The notes under the pieces: generated by a model | Databases searched by the model: none | What the model was told of the DNA's origin: nothing | What the model saw: only the letters and a program-made list of their open reading frames with translations | Position numbers and translations under genes: made by a program | Shown here: piece after piece, positions 3,226 through 56,063 of the stretch | How positions within the stretch are numbered: the stretch's first letter is position 1 | Layout of the letters: every line of letters starts with the position of its first letter | Virus record (IMG/VR): IMGVR_UViG_3300049218_000295 | Location: 104,949 to 168,948 of that record | Length of the DNA: 64,000 bases | Source: a virus | Direction: 5' to 3' (one strand)

Positions 3226-4464
3226 ATGAGCTTTGATATTGATGTGCCGGAGAACACTTCTCAACCACAACAGGCAGCGCCAGTCACTCCTGCCGCAACC
3301 CTTCCAGCCCAAGGGACGTCAGTGGACCTACCAGACTTAGAAATGGCGGGACCCCGCACCAAAGCGGCCTATGTGGTTGAACCCGACCAGAAAGAACTAG
3401 CTGTCAAATTTGGAATCATTGGTTCTGGTCAAGGTGGTTCTCGCTTAGCTGATACTTTCTACCAACTTGGCTATCGTCGGGTGTGTGCAATCAATACAAC
3501 TCACCAAGATTTTTTGGGGCTTGAAATTCCAGTTAAGAACCAAAAAGTTCTTGAAGAATCTGAAGGCGGAGCGGGTAAGGACATTAAGAAGGGCGAAGAA
3601 GCACTTTCTCATGCTACCGAGGAAGTGATGAACCTTATGCGCCACTCTTTCGGTGAAGATATTGAACACATTATGGTCTGCGTCGGCGCAGGCGGCGGCA
3701 CAGGAACTGGCACGGCTCTTGGCCTTGTCAAACTCGCACGCTACTACATGAGACAGCTTAACAAACCCGAAAAGGTTGGGATGATAGTTTCCCTCCCCAA
3801 ATTTATTGAAGGCGGTAAAGTCCAGGCTAATGCTCATGAACTGCTTACTGCTTTGGCTCCGGAAGCCGCTTTGGCCAAATTGGGTCCAGATGCCTCAGGC
3901 AGTCGCCTCTCCCCTTTTGTCTTGGTAGACAACGAAAGCATTCACCAAATGTTTCCCGATGTCTCGGCCAAAAAATTCTGGCAGACCGCCAATCGCAATG
4001 CCATTGGACTCTTTGACATTTTCAACGTTCTTGCGGCCCAGAAGTCGGCATACCACACTTTTGACCGAGCAGACTACCGTAACATGTTGGACTCTGGGGT
4101 CCTCATTTTCGGGGCAACAAAGCTCGACTCTTACAAAAGTGACACCGACATTTCGGATGGCCTGCGCACCAACTTAAAGAGGACTCTCCTCGCGGATGTT
4201 GACATCACCACGGCAACCCACGTTGCTGGGATTTTGGCAGCCCCAGATGCAATTCTTGAAATTTTGCCACAATCACACATTGACCTTGCTTTTGCTACCT
4301 TAGAGCGCATCTTAAGTGGCGAGGGTAGAAATCTAACTGTTCATCAAGGTGTCTACGAAGCCTCCCCCAACAAGATGGGACTTTTTCTCTACACCATGGT
4401 GGGCGGATTGACAATACCACAAAAACGGCTTGCCATTATGAAGGCCCGATCCGGTACAGTGTAA
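3226..4464 (+). CDS. Tubulin/FtsZ-family GTPase
   Basis: Filament-forming GTPase of the tubulin/FtsZ superfamily, 412 aa. Visible motifs: the N-terminal nucleotide loop GSGQGGSR at residues 66-73, the tubulin signature GGGTGTG at 156-162, NRNAIGLFD near 257-264 (helix H7 region) and a T7-loop-like FDRADYRNML with Asp280/Asp283 as candidate catalytic acids. The first 55 residues are a Pro/Ala-rich disordered tail. Start ATG at 3226 has AAGGAG upstream. In jumbo phages, relatives (PhuZ, TubZ-like) position replication compartments or virions; that role here is inferred. The gene sits among virion genes rather than replication genes. Confidence 0.93.
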   Translation: MSFDIDVPENTSQPQQAAPVTPAATLPAQGTSVDLPDLEMAGPRTKAAYVVEPDQKELAVKFGIIGSGQGGSRLADTFYQLGYRRVCAINTTHQDFLGLEIPVKNQKVLEESEGGAGKDIKKGEEALSHATEEVMNLMRHSFGEDIEHIMVCVGAGGGTGTGTALGLVKLARYYMRQLNKPEKVGMIVSLPKFIEGGKVQANAHELLTALAPEAALAKLGPDASGSRLSPFVLVDNESIHQMFPDVSAKKFWQTANRNAIGLFDIFNVLAAQKSAYHTFDRADYRNMLDSGVLIFGATKLDSYKSDTDISDGLRTNLKRTLLADVDITTATHVAGILAAPDAILEILPQSHIDLAFATLERILSGEGRNLTVHQGVYEASPNKMGLFLYTMVGGLTIPQKRLAIMKARSGTV

Positions 4465-11267: not shown

Positions 11268-12368
11268 ATGAAAAAGCTGCAAGACCTGAAAAAAGCCCTG
11301 AACGAAGCCTGCCTGGAACGGTCCGACGTTATCGATGGCGCACTGACGGCGTTGGCCGCTCGTGAACATATGCTCATCATCGGCACCCCTGGTAGCGGAA
11401 AAAGCATGCTCTCCCGGTTGATTGCCAAGGCCACTCATGGCGAATATTTCGAGACGCTTTTTCACCCACTTATGAAGCCCGAGGAAATCTTTGGACCATT
11501 CTCTGCCAAGGGTATGCTCGAAGACAAGTTCGTTCGCAAAGTCGACGGCTACCTCCCGACCGCTGATATCGCTTTCGGCGATGAAGTCTTCAAAGCATCA
11601 GTAAGTCTTCGCCAGACCGTGCTTGGTATCCTCAATGAGCGCCACTATAACAACGGCGGCAAAACCTTGGCTTGCCCTCTCCGCACCTTTTTTGCAGCTT
11701 CGAACGAACTGCCGACTAGCCCCAACGACGCCGCTTTCTTTGACCGTTTAGCTCTGCGCTTTGAAGTCTCTCAAATCCAGGACGACGACAATGCTATCCT
11801 CCTTTTCACGGGTTTGCCCGAAGTCAAAATCCCAGACCTCAGCAAGGCTGACCTCGCTCAGATTGACCAGGAAGTTCCACAAATCAAGATCACTAAAGAC
11901 GTTGCCGACCTTCTAGTTGAAATCCGCCGCGAAGTCGCGAATGCTAATATCTTCGTTTCTGACCGCAAATGGCGGCAAGCAGCACGGTTGCTCCAAGCTG
12001 CAGCTTACCTCAATGGCAAGACCGAAGTGGAGCAGGACCACTTTGATATCCTGAACGCGGTTATCTGGAACACTCCGGACGAACGACCTCGCGCTCGCAA
12101 AATCATTGGTAAGCATGGCAACCCACTCGGTGAGAAGATTTTTGCCCTACAAGATGCCTTTGCCGAAATAGTCAGAAACATGAAACTTCCTAAAGGCGAT
12201 GAAAACCACATCGAAATGGCAGAAGGTGTGACTAAGATGCGTGGCACGATGGAAAAGTTCTCTGAAATGAAGAAGGAACACCCAAAGAACGAAAAAGTGG
12301 CGCGGGCTTTCGAAATCTGCAAATCAGACTACAACAAGTATCTCACCAAACATCTTGGCGTGAAATAA
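11268..12368 (+). CDS. MoxR/RavA-family AAA+ ATPase
   Basis: ATP-driven chaperone/remodelling ATPase of the MoxR branch, 366 aa. Walker A GTPGSGKS lies at residues 39-46, Walker B IAFGDE at 101-106, sensor-1 AASNELP near 143-149, followed by the usual helical lid. MoxR proteins pair with VWA-domain partners and mature or insert metal cofactors or remodel complexes. Here the VWA partner lies 1.6 kb downstream (13943-15343). The gene has a consensus promoter and a good ribosome site. The substrate in phage infection is unknown. Confidence 0.92.
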   Translation: MKKLQDLKKALNEACLERSDVIDGALTALAAREHMLIIGTPGSGKSMLSRLIAKATHGEYFETLFHPLMKPEEIFGPFSAKGMLEDKFVRKVDGYLPTADIAFGDEVFKASVSLRQTVLGILNERHYNNGGKTLACPLRTFFAASNELPTSPNDAAFFDRLALRFEVSQIQDDDNAILLFTGLPEVKIPDLSKADLAQIDQEVPQIKITKDVADLLVEIRREVANANIFVSDRKWRQAARLLQAAAYLNGKTEVEQDHFDILNAVIWNTPDERPRARKIIGKHGNPLGEKIFALQDAFAEIVRNMKLPKGDENHIEMAEGVTKMRGTMEKFSEMKKEHPKNEKVARAFEICKSDYNKYLTKHLGVK

Positions 12369-12377
12369 GGAGTGACT

Positions 12378-13214
12378 ATGACTAAGAGCGACCTTCCCAT
12401 TATCGGCTGGCTAGTGAACTACAATACGACCACGAAATTCAGCATTAAGCGCGATGACTTACTCAAGCTCATGGCAAAACACGACATTCCTGGCAACATC
12501 GCCAAGAAGGTACTCGACCGCAATGCTGTCATTCGCTCGGTGCGCAATACTGCTAAAGGCATTCTCGGTAAGAAGCTACGTTTCATCGTCACTGATGAAA
12601 AAGACGTGATGGTCATGGCGATTGCGATGGTGGACTCGACAGCCAATAACGATGCCAAAGTCAAGCAAGTTACCAAGGTGGTTTACGACAAGAAGACTAC
12701 GGAATTGACAGTCGAGGGTGAACACCAAGATGCTATCAAGCAAGGCTATGAAAATGCCAAAGACAGCTACGAGTCGGACCAGTTTCGTTCCATCGTGCTC
12801 CGCTACCTCAAAAAGGAGTGCATGGCAGTCAACTACCTTGAAACCGGTAACATCTACGTGGTGGCTACCGCGAAAGAGGACAAGCTCCAAAATATCGCCG
12901 CCCTATTCGAAGACCTTGGCAAAGACAACTGTGTTCTTCGCCGCAAAGAGGAGTACGACACCACTGCCAATCGCACCGTGATGTTGGACGTGGCAGTAGG
13001 GGAACTCCAGAAGGAAATCGAACACCACCGCAAGGATTTCGAAAACCAGGAAGACCTCACTGAGCGTGGTCTCGCCGCACGAGTTCGCAAGTATAAGGAA
13101 ACCGAGCTTAAAGCCCACATGTGGGGTTCGGTTCTGCAGGAGAAGGTAGACAACCTCGCCAAAGAACTGGATGGCCTGACTAAAGCGGTTCGCAAAAAGC
13201 TGATAGTGGAATAA
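12378..13214 (+). CDS. Unknown protein in moxR-VWA cassette
   Basis: A 278-aa mixed alpha/beta protein; residues about 200-275 are a charged, probably coiled, helical segment. ATG at 12378 is chosen over GTG at 12372 because AAGGAG sits 6-7 nt before it. It lies 9 nt after the ATPase gene, so is likely part of the same complex or operon. No family recognised. Confidence 0.6.
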   Translation: MTKSDLPIIGWLVNYNTTTKFSIKRDDLLKLMAKHDIPGNIAKKVLDRNAVIRSVRNTAKGILGKKLRFIVTDEKDVMVMAIAMVDSTANNDAKVKQVTKVVYDKKTTELTVEGEHQDAIKQGYENAKDSYESDQFRSIVLRYLKKECMAVNYLETGNIYVVATAKEDKLQNIAALFEDLGKDNCVLRRKEEYDTTANRTVMLDVAVGELQKEIEHHRKDFENQEDLTERGLAARVRKYKETELKAHMWGSVLQEKVDNLAKELDGLTKAVRKKLIVE

Positions 13215-13223
13215 GGAGACAAT

Positions 13224-13427
13224 ATGCAAATCTCGATAATGCTCGATCTACTTGACTCTTGTGACCAAGAAAACGAACTCAAGGTTGCACATAAACTCGT
13301 CAGCGCGGAGTGCGAATTGGTGGCGAAACGAGACCCCGCAGCAATGAAGCCGCTCGAATACATCGCGTGCAGTTGGGCTTTCCGATATCTTTGCCATTCG
13401 GCTCTAAATTCTGGTATCAATCATTAG
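13224..13427 (+). CDS. Small unknown protein
   Basis: A 67-aa helical protein with AAGGAGAC before the ATG; ends in TAG. The frame continues past TAG into the upstream part of the 13680 gene, but a convincing gene occupies another frame there, so read-through is not favoured. Confidence 0.6.
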   Translation: MQISIMLDLLDSCDQENELKVAHKLVSAECELVAKRDPAAMKPLEYIACSWAFRYLCHSALNSGINH

Positions 13428-13434
13428 GAACAAT

Positions 13435-13623
13435 ATGAAAAAGTGGACCGCCCCGATAACTATCCAAGAACTAACAGACGAAGAGAAGCTGGAAGTCATC
13501 GACCAGTTGCTGAAGCACTCCGGGTTCTTTCTTGTGTCCGAAGAGGACCGATCTTTACCCCGCGCCCGCAAAATCCTTTTGCTGCCGGAACCGCCCTTCT
13601 CCGGGGTTCCGGAGCGTGGTTGA
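13435..13623 (+). CDS. Small unknown protein
   Basis: A 62-aa protein with an acidic helical N-terminal half (ELTDEEKLEVIDQLL). It starts 7 nt after the previous stop. Function unknown. Confidence 0.55.
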   Translation: MKKWTAPITIQELTDEEKLEVIDQLLKHSGFFLVSEEDRSLPRARKILLLPEPPFSGVPERG

Positions 13624-13644
13624 GCCGGGTCAACCGGGACACAC

Positions 13645-13673
13645 TTGTGCACCATAGCACAGTGTGCTATAAT
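13645..13673 (+). promoter_or_regulatory. Promoter giving a leaderless mRNA
   Basis: TTGTGC at 13645-13650, 17-bp spacer, TATAAT at 13668-13673. The ATG at 13680 begins exactly 6 nt after the -10 box, where +1 is expected, so the transcript should begin at the start codon. Confidence 0.85.
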
Positions 13674-13679
13674 AGAAGT

Positions 13680-13946
13680 ATGAGTAAGCCAACAATAAGT
13701 TACCCACTCTATCTCTTCAAGAAGTCGGGCTCCGTGGTCGAACTGGTCGCGGATTGGGCACCGAGGTTCGCAGGTAAGCCCGGTGCGGTTGTCAAGCGTT
13801 ATGACACCGGCAAAGAAATGTTCGTCCTAAAGGAGGCGCTCGTGCCTCTCGTCCAGCTTTCGGCCTGCCATGGCGAGCTGGTCTGGGTCACCGACGACGC
13901 CGACCAAACCGAAATCACCGTTCCAAGTAGGAAGGTGTCCAAATGA
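13680..13946 (+). CDS. Small unknown protein, probably leaderless
   Basis: An 88-aa protein. The ATG at 13680 is chosen because it sits at the predicted transcription start of the promoter at 13645-13673; the longer reading frame back to 13443 overlaps another gene. The stop overlaps the VWA gene start (ATGA), so it is transcribed and probably translated together with the VWA gene. Confidence 0.7.
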   Translation: MSKPTISYPLYLFKKSGSVVELVADWAPRFAGKPGAVVKRYDTGKEMFVLKEALVPLVQLSACHGELVWVTDDADQTEITVPSRKVSK

Positions 13947-15343
13947 GCAAATCTAAAGCCCCAAAGCCCCAGCCAACTATTGAACCCGCTATCGTTAAGG
14001 ATGCTTATGACCAGATTTTGTATGACGGCGTCCGGGAGAACGCGGGCAACCTGCAGGACCTAGTCAAGAATGACCCCGACCGCGACATTTTGACATCCGA
14101 CATTTTCAGCGCTTTATATAAGAGCAAACCCACGCTGCGCTCGGAGTCCCGTGGACTTTCGCGCAAACTCATGGAGACGATGATGGGCCTGCCGGAGTAC
14201 CAGACACTCCGCGCACATACCAAGTTCGATGATATTACGTCCGCACTCGGAACCATTAAGCTCGCCCCTCGGGTGCTAGAGTCCTATGAAGAAGCCCGCA
14301 AGAAAATGGAGCAAAAGCAGCAGGAACAAAAGGGACAAAACCCAGGCCCAGATGGTAATGACCCTGAAAACCAAATTGATGACGACATCATGGACGGTCT
14401 GCGCCAGGGTATCCGTTCCGGCCTGAAAGCTGCACAGGAAAGTTCCGAAGAGTGGGGCGACGTCGCTAAAGGCTGGGGAGTCGGCAGAGACGAACTCGGC
14501 TCAGTTCCTACCGAAGCCAAGTTCGTGCTAGCAGAGAAACTCCTTAAATCGTCCAAGCTCCGGAAAATCGCCGATATGGCTGGGCGTCTGATCCAAGTAG
14601 CCAACGCTGCGGCAGCACAGACTCCGGTGCGCGGCATGGACGAAGTCACGGATGTTATCACCGGTAGCGACCTGTCCGACATTTTGCCTTCCGAATGGCT
14701 TAAACTTAAAATGACTCCAGCGCTCTTTATGAAGGACCTCATGGAGGACAACCTCATGATGTACAATTTGCGCGGCGTGGAAAATCAAGGCTACGGTCCA
14801 ATCATCATGTGCCTGGACATTTCACCATCGATGCAAGGCGAACGCGAAGTATTCGCTAAAGCCTTGGCCATAGCCCTCATGTTTATGGCGGAAAAGCAAA
14901 AGCGAGCATTCGGATTGGTGACTTTTGGTACTCAAGTGCACGAGACGATGTACGTGCCAGCAGGCCAGAAGTCTTCTATCGAGAACAAGATGCAGATTGC
15001 GGAGATTGTCTGCAATGGTGGTGGCACTGATTTCTATGTCCCGCTTAAAGCAGCCTTTGTAATCCGCCAGCAAGAGAAAGCCCAACTCAATCCTGCTGAT
15101 ATTGTGTTCCTGACTGATGGCGAATGCGAGATGGACGAGGAACAGCACGAAGAGATCGCCGAACTCAAAAAGGAAACCTCGGTTCGCATCCAAGGGATTG
15201 CGATTTGCGATGGCAGTAGTGACGAAGTCTGTGAAGGCTCCACGCTTGAGCGGTTCTCGGATAACCTCGCCACCGTGGACAAGCTTGGTGAAGTTCACAT
15301 GGTAAAGGGCATCCTGGCAAATGCGGCAGCAGGAAAGCGATAA
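13943..15343 (+). CDS. VWA-domain protein, ViaA-like
   Basis: A 466-aa protein with a helical N-terminal region, a Gln/Asp-rich linker near 125-150 and a C-terminal von Willebrand A domain. The MIDAS motif D-x-S-x-S is DISPS at residues 292-296, with further metal ligands expected in the GGTDF segment. The architecture and length resemble ViaA, the partner of RavA-type MoxR ATPases, and a MoxR gene lies nearby. It probably acts in the cytoplasm with the ATPase; the target is unknown. Confidence 0.88.
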   Translation: MSKSKAPKPQPTIEPAIVKDAYDQILYDGVRENAGNLQDLVKNDPDRDILTSDIFSALYKSKPTLRSESRGLSRKLMETMMGLPEYQTLRAHTKFDDITSALGTIKLAPRVLESYEEARKKMEQKQQEQKGQNPGPDGNDPENQIDDDIMDGLRQGIRSGLKAAQESSEEWGDVAKGWGVGRDELGSVPTEAKFVLAEKLLKSSKLRKIADMAGRLIQVANAAAAQTPVRGMDEVTDVITGSDLSDILPSEWLKLKMTPALFMKDLMEDNLMMYNLRGVENQGYGPIIMCLDISPSMQGEREVFAKALAIALMFMAEKQKRAFGLVTFGTQVHETMYVPAGQKSSIENKMQIAEIVCNGGGTDFYVPLKAAFVIRQQEKAQLNPADIVFLTDGECEMDEEQHEEIAELKKETSVRIQGIAICDGSSDEVCEGSTLERFSDNLATVDKLGEVHMVKGILANAAAGKR

Positions 15344-26303: not shown

Positions 26304-26879
26304 TCAAATGTAGACAATTCCGAAATGTACTATAGCTACTGGATGGACTGTATTGTGTGCCAACCCATCCACTCCGTCCCCGCTACCAGTGGTGAATGAA
26401 TGATAGTGGGGTGCCGATGGCGGCGAAGTATAGTTATAGACCGCTGGTGCTCCATCACGACCGAAACCAGGCGGTGGCTGATTGTTGGTAAGGTTGGCAT
26501 AATCATCCTGATATGTTACAAAATAGTGAGTGTGGTCCGCCGATTCGTACCCAGTACTACCACTGTGAGTATGGTACTCAAGCTCAGAAGCTGCTAAAGT
26601 GTGGCTTTCCTCTCCTGAAGTTTGGCCTAGGGTGCGCAGACTGAGACTTGCACCTTGGCCATCACCCATCGGAGTCCGGCTGCGAAGATCTGGGACGTTA
26701 AAATTACTACCGCTTCCGCCCCAGGTGTAACCAATCTTGGCAAAGAGATAAGGATAGGTTGCAATCGAGTAAGAACTTCCATCGCAAAGTATTACTCCCG
26801 GAGGCAGGTCGCTTTGCCCTACCTGAATTATCTGTCCGATAGTTAATCCAGTCCGGTCGATTTTGGGAATCCGTGGCAT
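26304..26879 (-). CDS. Tail-collar domain protein (paralogue 2)
   Basis: A 191-aa tandem paralogue of the preceding collar protein with the same GQIIQVGQSDLPPGVILCDG and FNVPDLRSRTPMGDGQG blocks and the same His-rich middle. Differences cluster in the hinge (residues 84-100) and the C-terminal loop region. Spacing to paralogue 1 is 24 nt. Confidence 0.9.
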   Translation of the reverse strand: MPRIPKIDRTGLTIGQIIQVGQSDLPPGVILCDGSSYSIATYPYLFAKIGYTWGGSGSNFNVPDLRSRTPMGDGQGASLSLRTLGQTSGEESHTLAASELEYHTHSGSTGYESADHTHYFVTYQDDYANLTNNQPPPGFGRDGAPAVYNYTSPPSAPHYHSFTTGSGDGVDGLAHNTVHPVAIVHFGIVYI

Positions 26880-26892
26880 ACTCCAAAAATAA

Positions 26893-26963
26893 TGGTGCCC
26901 CCACCCGGAGTCGAACTGGGCGCTAACGCCTTAGAAGAGCATGGCGGCATCCTTGCTGGGGGC
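26893..26963 (-). tRNA. tRNA-Arg(UCU), reduced D-arm
   Basis: Acceptor GCCCCCA/TGGGGGC, anticodon stem ATGCT/GGCGT with loop CTTCTAA, encoded CCA. Only 71 nt: the D-arm is reduced to about 12 nt and the T-stem has one mismatch. Possibly degenerate. Confidence 0.65.
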
Positions 26964-26980
26964 AAAGTTATTTTGTCAGT

Positions 26981-27547
26981 GTGCCAAAGATTAAAGGTAT
27001 TGATATTTCTGGCTACGCAGTGGGGCAAATGATTGACATTAGCTCAACTACTTTGCCGTTTGGAACTCTCGCTTGCGATGGTTCAGCCTATTCAACAGCA
27101 GCCTATCCCTCACTGTTTGCTGCAATACAGTACACCTATGGTGGTTCAGGCGGGAGCTTCAATGTGCCGAATTGCCAACGCAAAACGCTAGTTGGTTCTG
27201 GCGGCACCGGAACTTCGGAGCTAGGAAGCACCGTCGGAAGTTCGGGCGGCGAGGAATCTCATCTGCTGTTGGCAGCGGAATCCGGAATGCCAAGCCACTA
27301 CCATACCATTACCGATCCTTCACATGGGCACAGTCTCTCTAACTCGGTCTCGGGGAACACTGGGAATACAAACGACAACACGGCCAATGTGACGGCAGTT
27401 AATAGGTACGGTCTCATCGAGAACATTGTTGCCAACAACAACTATACGGGAATTACCGTGAATTATGCTGCGGCGGAAAATGCTAGTTCCTATCACAACA
27501 ACATTCAGCCATCTTTGGTAGTTACCAAAGCTATTGCCTATATCTAA
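26981..27547 (+). CDS. Tail-collar domain protein (paralogue 3)
   Basis: A 188-aa collar protein on the opposite strand to its two relatives, with GTG start. N-terminal KGIDISGYAVGQMI and FNVPNCQRKTLVGSG keep the collar signature; the C-terminal half (PSHYHTITDPSHGH) is different. More diverged than paralogues 1 and 2. Confidence 0.88.
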   Translation: MPKIKGIDISGYAVGQMIDISSTTLPFGTLACDGSAYSTAAYPSLFAAIQYTYGGSGGSFNVPNCQRKTLVGSGGTGTSELGSTVGSSGGEESHLLLAAESGMPSHYHTITDPSHGHSLSNSVSGNTGNTNDNTANVTAVNRYGLIENIVANNNYTGITVNYAAAENASSYHNNIQPSLVVTKAIAYI

Positions 27548-37965: not shown

Positions 37966-38499
37966 ATGAATACGTTGATGCGCGCCCTGGCTCGTGTTCT
38001 CGCTGAGGAACAGCCCCAAGAGTTGCCTAAACCCGTTCTCAATTTCTTCCGTGCTTGGGATAACTGGGTGAAAGATAAAGCACTCGAATACTCTAGGGAA
38101 CCGGCGGTCAAAGACTTTTTGAGCAAATATCAGCCAAAGCATGCTATGAAACTATATCGTGGACTAAAGTACGAGACAGAACATAAATCCCTCTTTGAAA
38201 AATTTCTAGGTACAGAGGTCAAAGAAGGCGTGGTTTTTGACTATAGCGACAAGCAGCTCTCTTCATGGACCACGGACATCAGTCACATTGAATATGGTGA
38301 TTTTCATTGTGATGAGGTTTGCAAATATGGGGTGATTCTAGAGGCGACTGTCCCACAGAATCTCCTTCTCGTTGATTTTTCCCTAATTCCGGAAGACTTA
38401 GCAAAGCTACTAGCTCTCCGAAATGAGGGAGAAGTTATTGTACAGCCTGGGAAGTTTCAGGCAAAGATAAAGTCTTTATCGACTTACAAGTCTGAGTAA
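37966..38499 (+). CDS. ADP-ribosyltransferase (R-S-E type)
   Basis: A 177-aa protein with the arginine-specific ADP-ribosyltransferase triad: Arg65 in KLYRGL, the S-T-S-like strand QLSSWTTD (99-103), and E-x-E at residues 154-156 (NEGEVIV). It would transfer ADP-ribose from NAD+ to a host target, as T4 Alt and Mod proteins do on RNA polymerase and translation factors. The N-terminal 60 residues are helical. Single gene, no antitoxin neighbour. Confidence 0.82.
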   Translation: MNTLMRALARVLAEEQPQELPKPVLNFFRAWDNWVKDKALEYSREPAVKDFLSKYQPKHAMKLYRGLKYETEHKSLFEKFLGTEVKEGVVFDYSDKQLSSWTTDISHIEYGDFHCDEVCKYGVILEATVPQNLLLVDFSLIPEDLAKLLALRNEGEVIVQPGKFQAKIKSLSTYKSE

Positions 38500-38501
38500 A
38501 G

Positions 38502-38578
38502 TGGTAGCCCCAGGGAGATTCGAACTCGCCGTCTGTAGATTCGTAGTCTACTGTCCTATCCTATTGAACGACAGGGCC
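38502..38578 (-). tRNA. tRNA-Arg(ACG)
   Basis: Acceptor GGCCCTG/TGGGGCT, anticodon stem GTAGA/TCTAC with loop CTACGAA, T-loop TTCGAAT with one mismatched stem pair, A73, CCA. Needs A34-to-inosine editing to read all CGN partners. Confidence 0.88.
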
Positions 38579-38588
38579 ACATACAGAT

Positions 38589-38653
38589 GAGGGATGGTGG
38601 AGGCGTCGCATTCCGGACTCCCCGGTTAGCGACTAGCATCCTTTCCATCCCTC
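38589..38653 (-). ncRNA. Structured small RNA candidate
   Basis: Nested helices: GAGGGATGG (38589-38597) with CCATCCCTC (38645-38653), GTCGC (38605-38609) with GCGAC (38629-38633), CCGG (38613-38616) with CCGG (38622-38625). It begins just downstream of a minus-strand promoter (38660-38690) shared in sequence with the hsp20 promoter, and precedes tRNA-Arg(ACG). Confidence 0.65.
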
Positions 38654-38659
38654 TGTCTT

Positions 38660-38690
38660 TAAAGATGGTTATGTTTTGGTCTTTGTCAAG
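38660..38690 (-). promoter_or_regulatory. Promoter copy upstream of small RNA
   Basis: On the minus strand: ACTTGACA, about 14 nt, then CATAACCATCTTTA. The same arrangement recurs before hsp20 (39061-39092). The -10 region is a poor TATAAT but resembles the CCATCTT of heat-shock sigma promoters. Confidence 0.6.
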
Positions 38691-39041
38691 TTAGGAAGCT
38701 TGCTCGATTTGCTTGGTAGAACCGCCGGTAATCGAGATCGCTCGCACCTTTGGCTGCACTCGCGGTAGCGAGATTTCAAGCAGTCCATTTTGCAGTGAAG
38801 CATCGATTTTTTCGTAATCGATGTTCTCTGGCAAAATGAAGTCCTGTTTGAAGTCCGAACCGCGTTTACGGTACTCGACTCGTAGAGCATGTTCTTGTTC
38901 CAACACTGAAACTTTGCACTGCTCCGAAGTTACGCCAGGTAGTTCCATTGTGAGCTTGCCATCGCTATAAGTTACTCCGGCTGGAGCTGTTGGAACATTC
39001 CAAGCAGGAAACGTAAAGGGAAAGAAAAGGTCATTAATCAT
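38691..39041 (-). CDS. Small heat-shock protein (Hsp20)
   Basis: A 116-aa alpha-crystallin/Hsp20 chaperone that holds unfolding proteins. Core strand ELPGVTSEQCKVSVLEQEHAL and the conserved C-terminal block LQNGLLEISLPR are visible; a short C-terminal extension follows. AAGGAGGT precedes the ATG. Its promoter (39061-39092) resembles heat-shock promoters. Confidence 0.92.
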   Translation of the reverse strand: MINDLFFPFTFPAWNVPTAPAGVTYSDGKLTMELPGVTSEQCKVSVLEQEHALRVEYRKRGSDFKQDFILPENIDYEKIDASLQNGLLEISLPRVQPKVRAISITGGSTKQIEQAS

Positions 39042-40076: not shown

Positions 40077-40325
40077 CTAATTCCTAATTTCCGTAAGAAG
40101 GTACTCGCAAAACCACATCCAGTTTGAAGCGGTCCAGCGAGAGAAATCGAAAAGAACTGCCCCCATTGGGGCTTCCGGCCTCAGCGGTTGGCCAAAATGA
40201 CTCGATGCGTGGTCCCGCATCTTCTGTATAATAGCAGCGTGATGAGCGATTCTATAAACACGAGCTTGGCTTAAGATTTTTTGCCTGTGGTAGGGTATTA
40301 GTTCTGAAAGGGTGACTTCGCTCAC
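40077..40325 (-). CDS. Small unknown protein, TAG stop
   Basis: An 82-aa basic protein with several His and Trp residues. No ribosome site of note; no domain recognised. Confidence 0.55.
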   Translation of the reverse strand: MSEVTLSELIPYHRQKILSQARVYRIAHHAAIIQKMRDHASSHFGQPLRPEAPMGAVLFDFSRWTASNWMWFCEYLLTEIRN

Positions 40326-40355
40326 AGCATGCTATACCATGCGAAGTCACGCCTG

Positions 40356-44299: not shown

Positions 44300-44305
44300 A
44301 TAAAT

Positions 44306-44431
44306 GCCACTGTAAGTGAAGAACCCTTTTACGTGCTTTAACCGCTAAGCTACCTGCCGACAAGCGGCAGGGCCAGGATTCGAACCTGGCGTCCCGATCT
44401 CCAAAAGATGAAAGATTCTACGGAGAGTGGC
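44306..44431. ncRNA. Stem element A with permuted tRNA
   Basis: Closed by GCCACT/AGTGGC. On the minus strand the insert reads T-arm (CCAGG/CCTGG, TTCGAAT), then CCTGCCG, a CTTGT loop, CGGCAGG, then a D-arm (TAGCTTAGCGGTTAAAGC). The tRNA 3' half thus precedes the 5' half and the acceptor stem is closed by a 5-nt loop. The inner helix on the minus strand is AGAATC/GGTTCT. Confidence 0.7.
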
Positions 44432-44463
44432 GAAACAAAATCCTTTTACAGAAAACTGGAGGT

Positions 44464-44523
44464 GCCACTGTAAATCTCGAAGCGGTTTTATCGTTGCAAG
44501 ATGAACGCTTCAAATAGAGTGGC
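44464..44523. ncRNA. Stem element B
   Basis: Simple copy of 60 nt: outer helix GCCACT/AGTGGC, middle helix GAAGCG/CGCTTC, inner helix TTTATC/GATGAA. Confidence 0.72.
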
Positions 44524-44538
44524 GAATAGAAAATTGTT

Positions 44539-44596
44539 GCTACTGTAGAATCCTAAGCTTGTTTATCCCCAAGATGAAGGCTTAAGAAAGAGTAGC
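44539..44596. ncRNA. Stem element C
   Basis: Simple copy of 58 nt: outer helix GCTACT/AGTAGC (compensatory change relative to copy B), middle TAAGC/GCTTA, inner TTTATC/GATGAA. Confidence 0.72.
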
Positions 44597-44613
44597 GAAT
44601 TAAAATTTTATGG

Positions 44614-44817
44614 TCAACTGTTGTTATCTTCAGCGATCTGTTCTAGGTCCTTTTTGTTGAGGGGCTCTTTTGAAAAGATGAAGCCATACATGTCGGAACC
44701 CTCAAAAGTCGGGTCCTCATACACGTGGCCTCCAAAGAACTTTGCGACTGTCTTTAGATCGCCAATCTCTGGTTGTTCTTTCCAATCCCAACTAATTGCT
44801 ACAGTGTCTTTTGCCAT
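44614..44817 (-). CDS. Small unknown protein
   Basis: A 67-aa acidic alpha/beta protein (MAKDTVAISWDWKEQPE start). Lies between stem element C and the insert-bearing tRNA. No family recognised. Confidence 0.6.
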   Translation of the reverse strand: MAKDTVAISWDWKEQPEIGDLKTVAKFFGGHVYEDPTFEGSDMYGFIFSKEPLNKKDLEQIAEDNNS

Positions 44818-44833
44818 ATCCTTTTATAAATTA

Positions 44834-44958
44834 TGGTCGGGGGAGAAGGAGTCGAACCCCCATCTTCGCTCAACTGCTAAGAGCGTGTTCTCATGCACCA
44901 ACTCGGACGATGCGGGCAGTCGCATCTCGCTGTTGCATTACCGTTAAACTATCCCCCG
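44834..44958 (-). tRNA. tRNA-like gene with ~48-nt insertion
   Basis: Acceptor CGGGGGA/TCCCCCG, A73, CCA, T-arm GGGGG/CCTTC with TTCGACT, and a D-loop TAACGGTAA. Between D-arm and a CGCTC/GAGCG arm with a 9-nt loop lies an extra domain holding a GATGCG/CGCATC hairpin and an ATGCA/TGCAT closing pair. It could be an intron or an additional arm. The anticodon cannot be assigned. Confidence 0.6.
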
Positions 44959-44964
44959 AAAAAT

Positions 44965-45026
44965 GCCACTGTAGAACCCACGAGCCGGTTTTCATTTAAC
45001 AGATGAAAGCTCGCAGAAAGAGTGGC
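44965..45026. ncRNA. Stem element D
   Basis: Simple copy of 62 nt: outer helix GCCACT/AGTGGC, middle CGAGC/GCTCG, inner TTTCAT/ATGAAA. Confidence 0.72.
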
Positions 45027-45032
45027 GAAAAG

Positions 45033-45584
45033 TTATTGGATATGGCCGAGCCTTTTGGCCTCAGCCATTACTAAAGCGATGCGTGGGTCATTCCAGTACT
45101 GTTGATAAAGCACAGGCCCAAGCAACCTTTTAATGTTTACGAATTCTTGTTCAAAGGAATGCGACTGAGCATTGAAGAACCAACCAATTTTAGAAACATT
45201 TAGTTGACCGGCTAGAAACTTAAAGCCATTTATAGTGGGTCGATACTTGCCCAGTTTAGCGACTTTCAAAGGCACTTGTGGTTCAACTAATTCCCAGTGA
45301 TTCAATTGGGCGAAGGTGGTTCCGGCGGTATCTTTACGGCGTTTGGCTATGCACATGTTTGCTGGAATAAACTGCGCAGGAGTTTGTTGATTTTGCACTA
45401 CAATAAATAGGCCTTCCGCCATGGCTTTCGTAAATCGGTGCGGGTATAGACCTTCATCTCTGCCGGTACTGGAAATCACACGTTTATGACTAAGGATATT
45501 GGCTCTCTGCTCTAAAACCACATCTTTGTATAGTCTATGCCCGTTCATCTGAATGTCCAAATCGGAAAGTGTATGGTCTATCAT
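45033..45584 (-). CDS. Unknown protein, 183 aa
   Basis: Soluble protein; residues about 115-140 (GKYRPTINGFKFLAGQLNVSK) look like a winged-helix or fragment common in phage proteins of unknown role. It lies inside the RNA locus; no domain clearly recognised. Confidence 0.6.
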   Translation of the reverse strand: MIDHTLSDLDIQMNGHRLYKDVVLEQRANILSHKRVISSTGRDEGLYPHRFTKAMAEGLFIVVQNQQTPAQFIPANMCIAKRRKDTAGTTFAQLNHWELVEPQVPLKVAKLGKYRPTINGFKFLAGQLNVSKIGWFFNAQSHSFEQEFVNIKRLLGPVLYQQYWNDPRIALVMAEAKRLGHIQ

Positions 45585-45704
45585 CTTGGTTCTCCCAAAT
45601 GTCTTTTATAGCATATAATACCCAAATCGACTTCTTACAACCACCACATGAACATGAGGCCTTTTCCTGCCATCAGAGGACAACATTGACATTACACCTT
45701 TTAT

Positions 45705-45801
45705 GGAGCACTCAGTCTAGCTGGCTGGATTCGAACCAGCGCTCCCTTCGTCCCAAACGAAGTGCGATACCAGACTTCGCCACAGCTAGACTCAGTGCTC
45801 C
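45705..45801. repeat. 19-bp stem enclosing tRNA-Pro
   Basis: 45705-45723 and 45783-45801 are inverted repeats with a single C-C mismatch (45713/45793). The inner 7 bp are the tRNA acceptor stem; the outer 12 extend it beyond the mature tRNA. Confidence 0.85.
45716..45789 (-). tRNA. tRNA-Pro(UGG), no encoded CCA
   Basis: Acceptor CTAGCTG/CAGCTAG, anticodon stem CTTCG/CGAAG with loop TTTGGGA, T-arm GCTGG/CCAGC, A73. CCA is absent. Embedded in an extended 19-bp stem. Confidence 0.88.
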
Positions 45802-45824
45802 AGAAAATGGTTCCCGTGGAAATG

Positions 45825-45981
45825 TTGTGACCCTCGGGACAGGTTGTGAGCCTCCCAGTTAACTAGCCATTCGGGACTTTCAGAGGACTTCTCAGTCAGG
45901 TTTCCCTGCATTGCCCCTTACGATCTTGTTCCGAACCCCCTAGTTCAGTTCACTACCGTTTAAAAATCACGGCGGTCACGA
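45825..45981. ncRNA. Possible structured RNA, ~155 nt
   Basis: TTGTGACC at the left end can pair with GGTCACGA at the right end (last T-G wobble, TA). The gene-free interior is GC-rich with short pairings such as GAAC/GTTC. Sits between tRNA-Pro and stem element F. Weakly supported. Confidence 0.35.
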
Positions 45982-45986
45982 AGTTT

Positions 45987-46102
45987 GCTACTATAATCTC
46001 AAAACCCAGACCTTGCGGTTTTCATGGGTGCGGAATCGAACCGCCCCGGCCTCTGCCGGTGCCGCCAATAGGCCCCGTGATGAAGGGTTTCAAAAGAGTA
46101 GC
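45987..46102. ncRNA. Stem element F with tRNA-like insert
   Basis: Outer helix GCTACT/AGTAGC, middle AAACCC/GGGTTT, inner TTCAT/ATGAA. The minus-strand insert has a D-arm-like CCTATTGGCGG, a CCGGC/GCCGG hairpin with only a 4-nt loop (AGAG) where the anticodon arm would be, and a T-arm GCGG/CCGC with TTCGATT. A tRNA mimic without an anticodon loop. Confidence 0.65.
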
Positions 46103-46112
46103 GAATTGGCTT

Positions 46113-46337
46113 TTATAGCTTCAATCGTTTATGGACCTCGTCCCAGTAGACTCGTCCATGAACTTCGACTACAGCCTCTTCTAGGCGTGAGAGAATTGTC
46201 TTCTCTTTCCATCCCGACTTGAGGCCTTCCTTCACAAACTCGCCGTAAGCGACGACGTAGCCCTGTGAGTGTAAAGTGTCCAACAGAACAGCTAATGGTA
46301 AGCCATGTGTGTCGTAGAGCTTAAAGAGCCCTGACAC
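46113..46337 (-). CDS. Small protein resembling an AlaRS segment
   Basis: A 74-aa protein. The start LFKLYDTHGLPLAVLLD resembles the KLYDTYGFPxEL segment of alanyl-tRNA synthetase; the rest is helical and basic. Too short to be an enzyme. Inside the tRNA locus; homology is a suggestion only. Confidence 0.5.
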   Translation of the reverse strand: MSGLFKLYDTHGLPLAVLLDTLHSQGYVVAYGEFVKEGLKSGWKEKTILSRLEEAVVEVHGRVYWDEVHKRLKL

Positions 46338-46421
46338 TACCGGTCGCTGATCCTCGGTGATCCCGATTTGATTTAATAACTTGCCCCCATATGAGTACCC
46401 TCCTTAAAGATACTGTTGTTT

Positions 46422-46535
46422 GCCACTGTAAAGATGGAACCCGCATTTGTACTGGCGTCCTATCCAATTAGACTATTTTCACGGGATTCGAACCCGATTT
46501 CCAGTTGGATTGATGAAAGATTCCTAGAGAGTGGC
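46422..46535. ncRNA. Stem element E with rearranged tRNA
   Basis: Outer helix GCCACT/AGTGGC. On the minus strand the insert runs ACTGG (anticodon-stem 3' strand), T-arm CGGG/CCCG with TTCGAAT, a short TGAAAATA link, D-arm GTCTAATTGGATAGGAC, then CCAGT (anticodon-stem 5' strand). The acceptor stem is missing and the halves are permuted. Confidence 0.65.
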
Positions 46536-46552: not shown

Positions 46553-46741
46553 ATGGGCTGTACGCAAGAACAAGAGCTTAAAAGCTGTTTCGGTCGACTA
46601 CGAATAGACTATGAGCAAGTCCTCCCAAATAGAGGAATTGCGCTAGTACCCGGTTCCACTTCGGGCATCCGGGTCGGTGATGTGGTCTTCTGCTTCTCGG
46701 GGTCGACCTTTATTGGGTATGTCAACATCAATGGTGACTAA
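46553..46741 (+). CDS. Small unknown protein
   Basis: A 62-aa protein ending in a beta-rich SH3-like segment (GIRVGDVVFCFSGSTFIGYVNING). Starts 17 nt after stem element E. Overlaps the next gene. Confidence 0.55.
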   Translation: MGCTQEQELKSCFGRLRIDYEQVLPNRGIALVPGSTSGIRVGDVVFCFSGSTFIGYVNINGD

Positions 46742-47324
46742 TGCTGACTTCATTCAACTGCTTGGGCAATCCGTCGACAAGGCCATTGTCAATGGAGGCG
46801 GCGGGGCTGGTGGCCAGATTGTGGCTGTTTACGACGGCTTTGCCCTCACCAGTCACGGCGAGAGGGTGCCATTGCCGCCAGAGACGGGTCTCACCGTGAG
46901 TATTTGCGAAATCACTGGCCGCCCTGATAAAGTGATTTATGGTATCACTGACCGACCAACAATGATCATACGTATGAACTATTCAGGGGGTTTCAATCTA
47001 CTGATTGAGGACTATGCCCGGTTTCCAAATCACATTGAATTGCACGGCGACATTGAGGAAGGTCGCTACCGGATTGTCCAAGCCGATACCCAGGAAGAGC
47101 TTGATGAGTATGGGCGTAGCCTAAATGTTGCTGTAAGTCGTAGTCTATCTGAGCTTCTAAAGTCACAATGCCCAAACGGCCATAAGTGGCACTACTGCCC
47201 AACCCATAATACGCTACAAATGAATTCAGGCCACGATAAAGTTACCCAAAGCGAGGGCGGGAAATGCCTGGGAGCGACGGTGGCTCCTTTCGAAGGCGAC
47301 CAGGACCGAAGCGATAATTGCTGA
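46719..47324 (+). CDS. Unknown protein, ~200 aa
   Basis: Start at ATG 46719 or 46731 (overlapping the previous gene). Contains a Gly-rich loop (NGGGGAGG), a beta-rich middle and a Cys/His-rich stretch (CPNGHKWHYCPTH) that may bind zinc near residues 157-169. Its 3' end borders the large ornate RNA region. Confidence 0.55.
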   Translation: MSTSMVTNADFIQLLGQSVDKAIVNGGGGAGGQIVAVYDGFALTSHGERVPLPPETGLTVSICEITGRPDKVIYGITDRPTMIIRMNYSGGFNLLIEDYARFPNHIELHGDIEEGRYRIVQADTQEELDEYGRSLNVAVSRSLSELLKSQCPNGHKWHYCPTHNTLQMNSGHDKVTQSEGGKCLGATVAPFEGDQDRSDNC

Positions 47325-47950
47325 AGTAGAAGGTCTGTGTTATTTTACGCCCATTGGCTCACGGAAACGTGGTTGCCGGTCTCACATAAGTAAAAATGGG
47401 CGGAGCCCTCACATTGCATGACAGCTCCGCCCGTTGTCAAGGCCCGAGGAATTCTTGGTGGATATTCCTCGGGCCGTTTGACAAGCGCCAAAAACTATGT
47501 TCATGAGTTGGATCAGGTGGATTTGACCTCTGGAATTTCCGCACCGCAAGGGCCTGTGGCCCCCTATTGGTTTAGCTTATCCCCGTCTGTCCACCCGGCC
47601 AGGGTATCGGACTCGATAGGGTCTCAGCGGATTTTCCACTCACTGCTTGTAAATTCAAAAACTCTTCTGCAAACTTAGTCCCCCAATACGTTTGAGGCCG
47701 GTGTTGGATCTCTCCAAACCGGCCTCGAATTCCTTCAAAACTTTTTAATCTTGTTGATTAAGTTTTGAGATCCTCCAAAGCCGATTCGTTCCCGAGTTTA
47801 CCGGGGCGACGATCCAGGCACATAATCGCGACTGCCACTGCTGGCAACGCGTGCGTCTTATGTAATCTGGTTGTTAGCTTTATCGATCCCATTTGTTTTA
47901 CCTAATCTCCTGTGGCCTTTTATGGTCCACTGGATTGTTCTAACATGAAA
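47325..47950. ncRNA. Large ornate structured RNA candidate
   Basis: About 620 nt without a convincing gene, filled with hairpins. Clear ones: 47398-47406 with 47424-47432 (9 bp); 47434-47452 with 47464-47484 (12+7 bp, GT bulge); 47694-47708 with 47713-47726 (14 bp, G bulge); 47735-47750 with 47756-47768 (13 bp, TTT bulge); 47820-47825 with 47858-47863 enclosing TGCCA/TGGCA. CGCCCAT (47348-47354) competes for 47396-47402, and GGATCTC (47706-47712) competes with GAGATCC (47767-47773). Size, structure and place next to phage tRNAs recall ROOL and GOLLD RNAs; identity is unproved. Confidence 0.65.
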
Positions 47951-47971
47951 TCTAATATCGAGTCAATATTT

Positions 47972-48208
47972 CTATTTGCTCGTATATCTCGCTGCTTGTA
48001 CTGTGAGTTCTTCTAGCCGCTCGCAGAGACCCAATAATTGCTGATGCTCTTCTGAGGTGAGAGGCAAATTCTGATAAACTTTTTCTCGGAGAGGGAAAAT
48101 TTTGTTTCTGAGTTGTTGAGAACGACGGAGCAGCACTTCTTGATAGGGCAGCACTCCGATTTGGGCCAGAACTCTCCTTACCGATTCTGGACAAGAAGTA
48201 TCACTCAT
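47972..48208 (-). CDS. Small helical unknown protein, TAG stop
   Basis: A 78-aa helical protein (QNLPLTSEEHQQLLGLCERLEELT). Its start overlaps the upstream stop by 8 nt. Function unknown. Confidence 0.62.
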   Translation of the reverse strand: MSDTSCPESVRRVLAQIGVLPYQEVLLRRSQQLRNKIFPLREKVYQNLPLTSEEHQQLLGLCERLEELTVQAARYTSK

Positions 48209-48536
48209 CAGTAGTAGCTCCATTCTTGTATTCGAGATACGCGTTGAGGATGGCTTCAATATTCTCTCGGCCCACCGGATTAGCTGAGTGCACGTTGAAC
48301 TGAAAATCATCCGGAATTCGTACTTTTCCATCAAGATCAGCATCCACCAGCCATTTCGCAAAGCCATAACCGGATTCACTTTCAATATCGGAGCCTAAAT
48401 CGTGATCAAATGAGATATAAGAAGGGCACCCTGATTCCAGGACTACGGTCTTCGCTTCATCAACATTACGAACCACTACCCAGGAACGCTTGGTCTTAGG
48501 AACACGCTCGTCATCGATATAAAGTGACCAACTCAT
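48201..48536 (-). CDS. Receiver-like cPPR-domain protein
   Basis: A 111-aa protein matching the receiver domain associated with cyclic-phosphate processing: SLYIDDERVP at the start with the acidic pocket, ISFDHDLGSD, GYGFAKWLVD and FNVHSANPVGRENIEAILNAYL. Such domains occur in RNA-repair contexts, which fits the tRNA-rich genome. The start overlaps the upstream gene by 4 nt. Confidence 0.8.
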   Translation of the reverse strand: MSWSLYIDDERVPKTKRSWVVVRNVDEAKTVVLESGCPSYISFDHDLGSDIESESGYGFAKWLVDADLDGKVRIPDDFQFNVHSANPVGRENIEAILNAYLEYKNGATTDE

Positions 48537-49479: not shown

Positions 49480-50136
49480 TTAATCGTAGTCCCAAGGGTC
49501 AAGCCAAAGGCGCAATAGGCTTTTTTGGTCGGCAAAAGCATCCCAATCGCCCTTGGCAATCATACGTTCTTCCCAGCGTCGCATGCCACGGTTTCCGAGA
49601 GTACGACAGTACTTGCGTGCGCCCACACCCCGACGCCAATTACCGTAGTCTCGGCGGCGACTACGGGTGAAGCCCTTTTTGTCGCGCCAGTCCTTCTTCT
49701 TTTGCTTTTCGGCCTCGACTTCGGGGTCACGCTCTTTAGCGGAATAGTCCACTGGGATTTTTTGGCGGTAGTGCGCACCGTTGCGAGGGTACCAATGGGA
49801 ATAATCGTCGCGGAGACAGCTACAGTAGCGACGATAACGGTGATGTCTTTCGCAAACACGTGGCAGGCCGCCATTAAGAACGGCGGTCTCGAACTCTTTA
49901 TAGGAGAGTTTGAGTTGCCCACCACCGCGACCAAGGTGGTAGAGATAGGTAAGAGTATCAAGTCGGATTTGATGGCTGGGCTTTACAGGCTCGGGTTCGG
50001 GGTCACGCCAAGGGGCGTAGTAGCGATATGGGGGTGCCCAGCAGGGGTCACCGTGCTGAGATTTGTAGAATTCATAAGCGGATGCTATGAACTGACGTTG
50101 AACGTCTTCGGTCCAAGGGGATGATACAGAATGCAT
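49480..50136 (-). CDS. Basic unknown protein, 218 aa
   Basis: Arg/Tyr/Trp-rich protein with a Cys/His-rich middle (CERHHRYRRYCSC). AAAGGAG precedes the ATG at 50136. A 199-codon open frame exists on the opposite strand but has no ribosome site. Possibly RNA-binding. Confidence 0.6.
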   Translation of the reverse strand: MHSVSSPWTEDVQRQFIASAYEFYKSQHGDPCWAPPYRYYAPWRDPEPEPVKPSHQIRLDTLTYLYHLGRGGGQLKLSYKEFETAVLNGGLPRVCERHHRYRRYCSCLRDDYSHWYPRNGAHYRQKIPVDYSAKERDPEVEAEKQKKKDWRDKKGFTRSRRRDYGNWRRGVGARKYCRTLGNRGMRRWEERMIAKGDWDAFADQKSLLRLWLDPWDYD

Positions 50137-50197: not shown

Positions 50198-50287
50198 GAT
50201 GAAAGATTGCGCCGAGAGCGGTGAACAAGTCCCCAAGACCAGCCGCTATAATTGGACAACCCTTTGAGGCCTTTTTGGGGCCTCACA
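50198..50287. ncRNA. Rearranged stem element G
   Basis: Carries the element's 3' half first (GTGATGAAAGATTGCGCCGAGAGCGGTGAA, split here: GATGAAAG at 50199-50206, AGCGGT at 50216-50221) and its 5' half afterwards (GCCGCTATAATTGGACAACCC region, GCCGCT near 50240-50245). AGCGGT and GCCGCT pair uniquely with each other, so the element looks circularly permuted. A GAGGCC/GGCCTC hairpin follows. Confidence 0.5.
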
Positions 50288-50324
50288 TCAAAGGTAACAC
50301 AGGTTGTGGACCATGTCAATCCAT

Positions 50325-53541: not shown

Positions 53542-53573
53542 CGTGAGCCAGCACCCGTCGATGCTGGCTCACG
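53542..53573 (-). terminator. Terminator hairpin after sedolisin gene
   Basis: CGTGAGCCAGCA (53542-53553) and TGCTGGCTCACG (53562-53573) form a perfect 12-bp stem with an 8-nt loop, 28 nt beyond the sedolisin stop. No strong U-tract follows on either strand. Confidence 0.7.
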
Positions 53574-55882: not shown

Positions 55883-55908
55883 AAGTACCTCTCCTATCAA
55901 AATAACTG

Positions 55909-55981
55909 AGGCCCCGACGGGAGTCGAACCCATGTACTAGGTTTTAGAAACCTCTGCTCTAACCAACTGAGCTACGGGACC
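55909..55981 (-). tRNA. tRNA-Sup(CUA), amber suppressor 1
   Basis: Acceptor GGTCCCG/CGGGGCC, D-arm TAGCTCAGTTGGTTAGAGC, anticodon arm GAGGT TTCTAAA ACCTA with anticodon CTA, T-arm ATGGG/CCCGT. The closing anticodon pair is a G-A mismatch. No encoded CCA. Decodes UAG; amino acid unknown. Confidence 0.85.
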
Positions 55982-55990
55982 ATATAAAGG

Positions 55991-56063
55991 CGCACCGGGT
56001 GGGGTTCGAACCCACGACACGCAGCTTTAGAAGCTGCTCCTCTACCAACTGAGGTACCGGTGC
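55991..56063 (-). tRNA. tRNA-Sup(CUA), amber suppressor 2
   Basis: Acceptor GCACCGG/CCGGTGC, perfect anticodon stem GCAGC/GCTGC with loop TTCTAAA (anticodon CTA), T-arm GTGGG/CCCAC, G73. No encoded CCA. Only 9 nt from the first suppressor. Confidence 0.9.

What the first reader, a model, noticed from the sequence alone, without database searches (positions are those of the whole stretch)
47325..47950. Candidate giant ornate RNA in a phage tRNA locus
About 620 nt with no gene contain at least five long, mostly perfect hairpins (9 to 19 bp), several with bulges typical of structured RNA and at least two pairs of mutually exclusive helices. The region sits directly beside tRNA genes. Large phage RNAs of this kind (ROOL, GOLLD) are known in such settings; whether this is one of them or a new class cannot be told from one sequence.
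Basis: partly seen in the sequence, partly recalled or inferred. Interest (0 to 1): 0.9.

Follow-up and report, generated by a model that had tools for sequence, protein, structure and literature searches.

The report
Orphan large structured phage RNA
A virus contig that looks like a large bacteriophage carries, between two converging genes, a gene-free stretch of about 540 bases that looks like the gene for one large folded RNA, with its own start and stop signals, and it matches no RNA family or related sequence that could be searched.

Summary
Four of the 13 perfect hairpin stems of 9 bp or more in the 64-kb window lie within 371 bases here. The stretch folds far better than shuffled copies (z about -7 to -8) and better than the other 112 tiles of the window. 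No reading frame looks coding. The pairs of exclusive helices exist. One detail is wrong: the nearest called tRNA is 1.5 kb away, not adjacent.

I read it as one minus-strand RNA of about 541 nt (47930 to 47390). A promoter-like site sits at its 5' end and an intrinsic-terminator-like hairpin with U5 at its 3' end. A 129-nt three-way-junction domain folds well only on the minus strand. Unpaired bases are 49% A. The middle 207 nt show no excess structure.

It matched none of 4,227 Rfam families (ROOL, GOLLD and tmRNA included). No homologue was found in 33 viral records, phage or plasmid collections, or by exact core searches of IMG/VR and GTDB. Covariation could not be tested, so structure and function are inferred from one sequence. 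The main rival is a long 3' UTR with stacked terminators between converging operons.

Side find: six paralogous RNA elements with covarying stems, three carrying tRNA-like inserts, lie 1-3 kb away.

The parts
47390..47930 (-). Proposed structured RNA, about 541 nt, 5' end near 47930 and 3' end near 47390
   Evidence: Fold z -6.9 on 100 shuffles; best 560-nt tile in the window; no coding signal; minus strand 56% purine, unpaired bases 49% A. Ends are inferred from the promoter-like and terminator-like sites, not measured.
47937..47966 (-). Promoter-like site TTGACT-N18-TAGAAC with TG (extended -10) before the second hexamer
   Evidence: One of only two sites scoring 11 or more on the minus strand between 44 and 57 kb; 21 such sites in the window against 9-11 in shuffles. 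Same architecture as, but weaker than, the perfect TTGACA...TGCTATAAT promoters of this contig. The score was defined after the site was seen.
47906..47934 (-). 5' hairpin H1: UCC-A-GUGG-A-CC-AUAAAA-GG-CCAC-A-GGA
   Evidence: z -4.2, 0 of 200 shuffles; pairs above 0.8 probability
47765..47893 (-). Domain II: long stem (GGGAUC../GAUCUC, AAAGC/GGCUUU) opening into a three-way junction with two arms
   Evidence: z -2.9 on minus (2 of 200 shuffles) but -1.0 on plus; most pairs above 0.8 probability on minus only
47735..47768 (-). Hairpin H4, 9 bp plus 4 bp
   Evidence: z -4.4
47694..47726 (-). Hairpin H5, 14 bp with one bulged C and a GAGA (GNRA) tetraloop on the minus strand
   Evidence: z -7.3
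47484..47690 (-). Middle segment with no excess of structure (possible linker)
   Evidence: z 0.25
47434..47484 (-). Hairpin H9, 12 bp plus 7 bp separated by a 2-nt bulge
   Evidence: z -8.2
47390..47432 (-). Intrinsic-terminator-like element: hairpin GGGCGGAGC...GCUCCGCCC followed by AUUUUUAC
   Evidence: Sequence; z -6.9 on minus against -5.6 on plus. The consensus scanner did not list it, because its loop (17 nt) exceeds the scanner's limit of 8.
46734..47324 (+). Flanking gene of unknown function (196 aa), converging on the region; not part of the RNA
   Evidence: positive coding score in one frame; no Pfam or PHROG match
47972..48202 (-). Flanking gene, end of a minus-strand operon that includes a cyclic-phosphate processing receiver-domain protein (48204-48536)

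Best explanation
47390-47930 is the gene for one stable, structured non-coding RNA of about 541 nt, made from the minus strand like the tRNAs of this locus. A sigma-70-type promoter at 47966-47937 starts it at the first hairpin, and an intrinsic terminator at 47432-47390 ends it. It has a folded 5' half (hairpin, three-way-junction domain, two long hairpins, one capped by a GNRA loop), a loose middle that may be a linker, and a two-hairpin 3' end that protects it from exonucleases. Most likely it accumulates during infection as a stable RNA scaffold, alone or with protein, in the way ROOL and GOLLD do, without being one of them. Shown: the hairpin cluster, the excess folding energy, the lack of coding signal, the strand bias of structure and composition, and the absence from Rfam. 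Inferred: transcription, ends, stability and function.
For: Hairpin clustering and folding. No coding signal. Strand: domain II folds beyond chance on minus only, and the terminator hairpin is more stable on minus and is followed by U5 only there; composition flips from purine-rich plus to purine-rich minus near 47400; 49% of unpaired bases are A; H5 has a GNRA loop on minus. Ends: promoter-like site 7 nt upstream of the proposed 5' end and terminator-like element at the 3' end. Setting: a minus-strand tRNA locus of 26 ARAGORN tRNAs. ROOL and GOLLD are encoded in phages, often near tRNA islands, and have an unstructured linker (PMC12286853).
Against: No homologue anywhere, so no covariation. 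Middle 207 nt unstructured. Ensemble diversity is higher on minus (105) than plus (69) and z values are similar on both strands. H11 at 47335-47380, outside the proposed RNA, has its GNRA loop on the plus strand. The promoter is weak (4 of 6 in the -10) and was scored after it was noticed. No expression data.
Confidence: 0.55

Rival explanations
1. Not one RNA but a long intergenic spacer between two converging operons. The hairpins are stacked terminators and 3'-end stabilisers for the plus operon ending at 47324 and the minus operon ending at 47972, plus chance structure between them.
For: The flanking genes do converge on it. One hairpin is terminator-like on minus. The middle is unstructured. 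Other intergenic spacers of this contig hold single strong hairpins, for example 53542-53573 and 40312-40350.
Against: The plus strand has no strong hairpin followed by a U-run in the region. Terminators do not explain domain II, H1, H4 and H5, or a promoter-like site at the 5' edge. About 650 nt and five to six hairpins is a lot for termination.
Confidence: 0.3
2. A very divergent member of ROOL or GOLLD that the Rfam models cannot see.
For: Length about 541 nt against 574 model positions for ROOL; phage tRNA locus; structured ends with a loose linker.
Against: No match at E<=10 in a 701-nt search against all families nor to ROOL over the contig. No ROOL-specific pseudoknot could be tested.
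Confidence: 0.05
3. A DNA-level element (origin, packaging or recombination site) whose inverted repeats act as DNA.
For: The long stems are almost all Watson-Crick and so symmetrical between strands.
Against: No GC-skew turn at the region. No direct-repeat array or second copy. The structure and composition are strand-asymmetric.
Confidence: 0.07

Closest known systems
ROOL RNA (RF03087)
   Same: Phage-borne, near a tRNA island, similar length (model of 574 positions), structured with a loose linker segment.
   Different: No sequence-structure match at E<=10; none of its pseudoknots or kissing loops could be identified here.
GOLLD RNA
   Same: Phage-borne, near tRNA islands, several long helices.
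   Different: Shorter (about 541 nt against often more than 800 nt, PMC12286853); no match to any Rfam family at E<=10.
Phage tmRNA (RF00023)
   Same: Large structured RNA at tRNA clusters; two records sharing this contig's ribonucleotide reductase, G003 and G006, carry tmRNAs beside their tRNA clusters.
   Different: No tRNA-like domain and no tmRNA match here. The only tmRNA-model matches in the contig are sub-threshold; none lies at 152338-152878, the contig position of the proposed RNA.
Structured 3' UTRs and stacked intrinsic terminators between converging operons
   Same: Position between converging genes; terminator-like hairpin.
   Different: Far longer, with a three-way-junction domain and a promoter-like site of its own.

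Membership tests
ROOL | Match to the ROOL covariance model RF03087 | tested here: not met
   No match at E<=10 in the whole contig and none in the 701-nt stretch. The 14 control genomes also gave no match, so the search had no positive control.
ROOL | Encoded in a phage or prophage near tRNA genes | tested here: met
   Viral record with 26 tRNAs in the window; nearest called tRNA 1.5 kb
ROOL | Conserved pseudoknots and homo-octamer nanocage | not testable with these tools
   Needs homologues or cryo-EM
GOLLD | Match to the GOLLD covariance model (conserved 3' domain) | tested here: not met
   No family matched at E<=10 apart from two miRNA/sRNA chance hits; none at gathering in the window. GOLLD was not run alone: the accession I guessed (RF01998) proved to be a group II intron model.
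OLE / HEARO / group I or II introns / RNase P / tmRNA | Match to the respective Rfam models | tested here: not met
   tmRNA; group-II-D1D4-1 also (its only match lies outside the window)
Large structured phage ncRNA (functional kind) | Base pairs supported by covariation in homologues | not testable with these tools
   No homologue found in 33 records searched with DNA and/or a domain II model, phages, plasmids, or by exact core patterns in IMG/VR and GTDB
Large structured phage ncRNA (functional kind) | Structure beyond chance and no coding signal | tested here: met
Large structured phage ncRNA (functional kind) | Abundant discrete transcript during infection | not testable with these tools
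   No RNA data available

The most novel reading that the evidence does not exclude
The RNA is the founding member of a new class of large phage RNA, unrelated in sequence to ROOL and GOLLD, that folds into a defined three-dimensional (perhaps multimeric) scaffold during infection.
Probability: 0.2. Interest if true: 0.85.

Novelty: new variant of a known kind. Interest (0 to 1): 0.45.

Why it matters
Very few large structured bacterial or phage RNAs are known, and those solved (OLE, ROOL, GOLLD) turned out to form RNA-only assemblies of unknown function. An unrelated phage RNA of the same size in the same genomic setting would suggest that large RNA scaffolds arose more than once in phages. 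The predicted ends and domains make it directly testable by in vitro transcription and cryo-EM. If it is only a long 3' UTR it matters little.

Tried and rejected
Homologue searches that failed: blastn in phages and plasmids; DNA query in 12 RNR-related and 12 terminase- or ATPase-related records, where the few weak hits (E 0.009-1, 14-27 nt, often the same A/T-rich hairpin) were taken as chance; a covariance model of domain II from the single sequence in 34 records including the own contig; nhmmer of the whole RNA against fetched loci; exact 18-20-mers in IMG/VR and GTDB. Routes to close relatives that failed: the neighbouring 196-aa protein, the RavA-like ATPase, an 845-aa protein, RecA. The ribonucleotide reductase brought records sharing little else; the terminase brought only 27-35% relatives. 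tmRNA considered because RNR-sharing records have one beside their tRNAs, rejected. Introns, RNase P and miRNA hits rejected. Replication origin rejected. Plus-strand RNA considered: it has a GNRA loop at 47335-47380 and lower ensemble diversity, but no terminator-like end and no fold signal in domain II.

Full report
WHAT WAS CHECKED. The window is the last 64 kb of a 168,948-base virus record that reads as a large tailed phage (terminase and portal; ribonucleotide reductase; DnaB-like helicase and RecA-like protein). The region lies between a plus-strand gene ending at 47324 and a minus-strand operon ending at 47972, so the flanking genes converge on it.

A scan of all perfect stems of at least 9 bp with loops up to 21 found 13 in 64 kb, four of them in 47398-47768. 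The stretch folds 7-8 standard deviations better than dinucleotide-preserving shuffles and is the best of 113 tiles of 560 nt, although the grid was anchored on it. Two pairs of mutually exclusive helices are present. There is no coding signal. Two corrections: the nearest called tRNA is 1.5 kb away, and 47484-47690 has no excess of structure.

STRAND AND ENDS. Most long stems are symmetrical, so total energy does not tell the strand. Other signs point to minus. Domain II (47765-47893), a long stem opening into a three-way junction, has z -2.9 on minus and -1.0 on plus, and its pairs exceed 0.8 probability on minus. The stem 47398-47432 is followed by AUUUUUAC on minus, as in an intrinsic terminator; nothing comparable exists on plus. 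Composition changes near 47400 from purine-rich plus to purine-rich minus, and 49% of the bases left unpaired in the minus fold are A, as is usual for structured RNAs (general knowledge). This contig has perfect extended -10 promoters of the form TTGACA-N17/18-TATAAT with TG. A weaker site of that form, TTGACT-N18-TAGAAC, ends 7 nt before the first hairpin; only two sites of that score lie on the minus strand between 44 and 57 kb. I noticed the site before I defined the score. Against this, ensemble diversity is higher on minus and whole-region z is the same on both strands. Together these give a proposed RNA of about 541 nt, 47930 to 47390. All ends are inferred.

WHAT IT IS NOT. No Rfam family matched at E<=10 apart from two miRNA/sRNA chance hits. 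ROOL, whose model has 574 positions, did not match in the whole contig, though that search had no positive control. tmRNA, present in G003 and G006, two records that share this contig's ribonucleotide reductase, is not here. Failing these tests lowers the claim that it is ROOL or GOLLD, not the claim that it works in a similar way.

HOMOLOGUES. None was found. No close relative of this virus turned up: the nearest terminases found are 27-35% identical, and records sharing a 70% identical ribonucleotide reductase share almost nothing else. The tools also state that very near records may be left out. Absence of homologues is therefore weak evidence about the age or spread of the RNA, and covariation, the decisive test, could not be done.

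MECHANISM. Best reading (0.55): an independent, stable minus-strand RNA with a folded 5' half, a loose middle and an armoured 3' end, acting as an RNA scaffold during infection. ROOL and GOLLD, whose cages hide a disordered linker, are the model (PMC12286853). Only the anatomy is shown; the function is analogy. Main rival (0.3): a long spacer with stacked terminators between converging operons. Lesser rivals: a very divergent ROOL/GOLLD (0.05) and a DNA element (0.07).

SIDE FINDING. On the minus strand of 44305-46535, about 0.9 to 3.1 kb from the region, six paralogous elements share GCYACTC-N-P2-TTCATC-loop-P2'-N-TAYAGTRGC. Their outer stem P1 covaries (GCCACT/AGTGGC and GCTACT/AGTAGC). Their inner stem P2 differs in every copy, yet 35 of 36 pairs are kept, and only 1 of 720 pairings of 5' with 3' arms, the true one, does so well. 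Three copies are about 60 nt; three carry a tRNA-like insert in permuted order (in the clearest, T-arm, 3' acceptor strand, 5' acceptor strand, D-arm). Rfam gives a sub-threshold match of one insert to YrlA, the bacterial Y RNA with a tRNA-like domain (24.1 bits against a gathering score of 69, E 0.035; PMC7790460). No Ro60-type (TROVE) gene is in the contig. No other copy was found in IMG/VR with a strict pattern.

Noticed in passing
44305-46535, minus strand (46535-46422, 46105-45990, 45026-44965, 44596-44539, 44523-44464, 44431-44306): Six paralogous RNA elements with a covarying outer stem and an inner stem different in every copy but always paired. Three carry permuted tRNA-like inserts; one insert matches the Y-RNA-like family YrlA below threshold. 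Possible Y RNAs, tRNA mimics or a new small RNA motif.
   Followed up: partly
50198-50225, minus strand: A partial seventh copy of the same element (5' part only) in the leader of the gene 49480-50136, downstream of a promoter-like site at 50319.
   Followed up: no
55908-56063, minus strand: Two tandem tRNAs with anticodon CUA (amber suppressor type). TAG still ends 15 of 82 ORFs of at least 200 aa in the contig, so wholesale recoding is not evident.
   Followed up: partly
44837-44958, minus strand: A 122-nt tRNA-like gene with a 49-nt insertion in the D-arm by the Rfam alignment, not called by ARAGORN.
   Followed up: no
L058 302-654 and L067 6469-6933 (records G003 and G006): tmRNA genes beside the phage tRNA clusters of two records sharing a 70% identical ribonucleotide reductase with this contig; ARAGORN missed the second.
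   Followed up: no
11268-15340, plus strand: A RavA-like MoxR ATPase and a ViaA-like protein side by side in a phage; the closest match found is Moorella phage MTATph1 at about 30% identity.
   Followed up: no
53542-53573, 26670-27229, 38430-38989: Other stretches of the window with unusually strong folding; the first is a 12-bp perfect hairpin between minus-strand genes.
   Followed up: no
3226-4464, plus strand: A tubulin/FtsZ-like protein (weak Pfam match, 412 aa), possibly a phage cytoskeletal tubulin.
   Followed up: no
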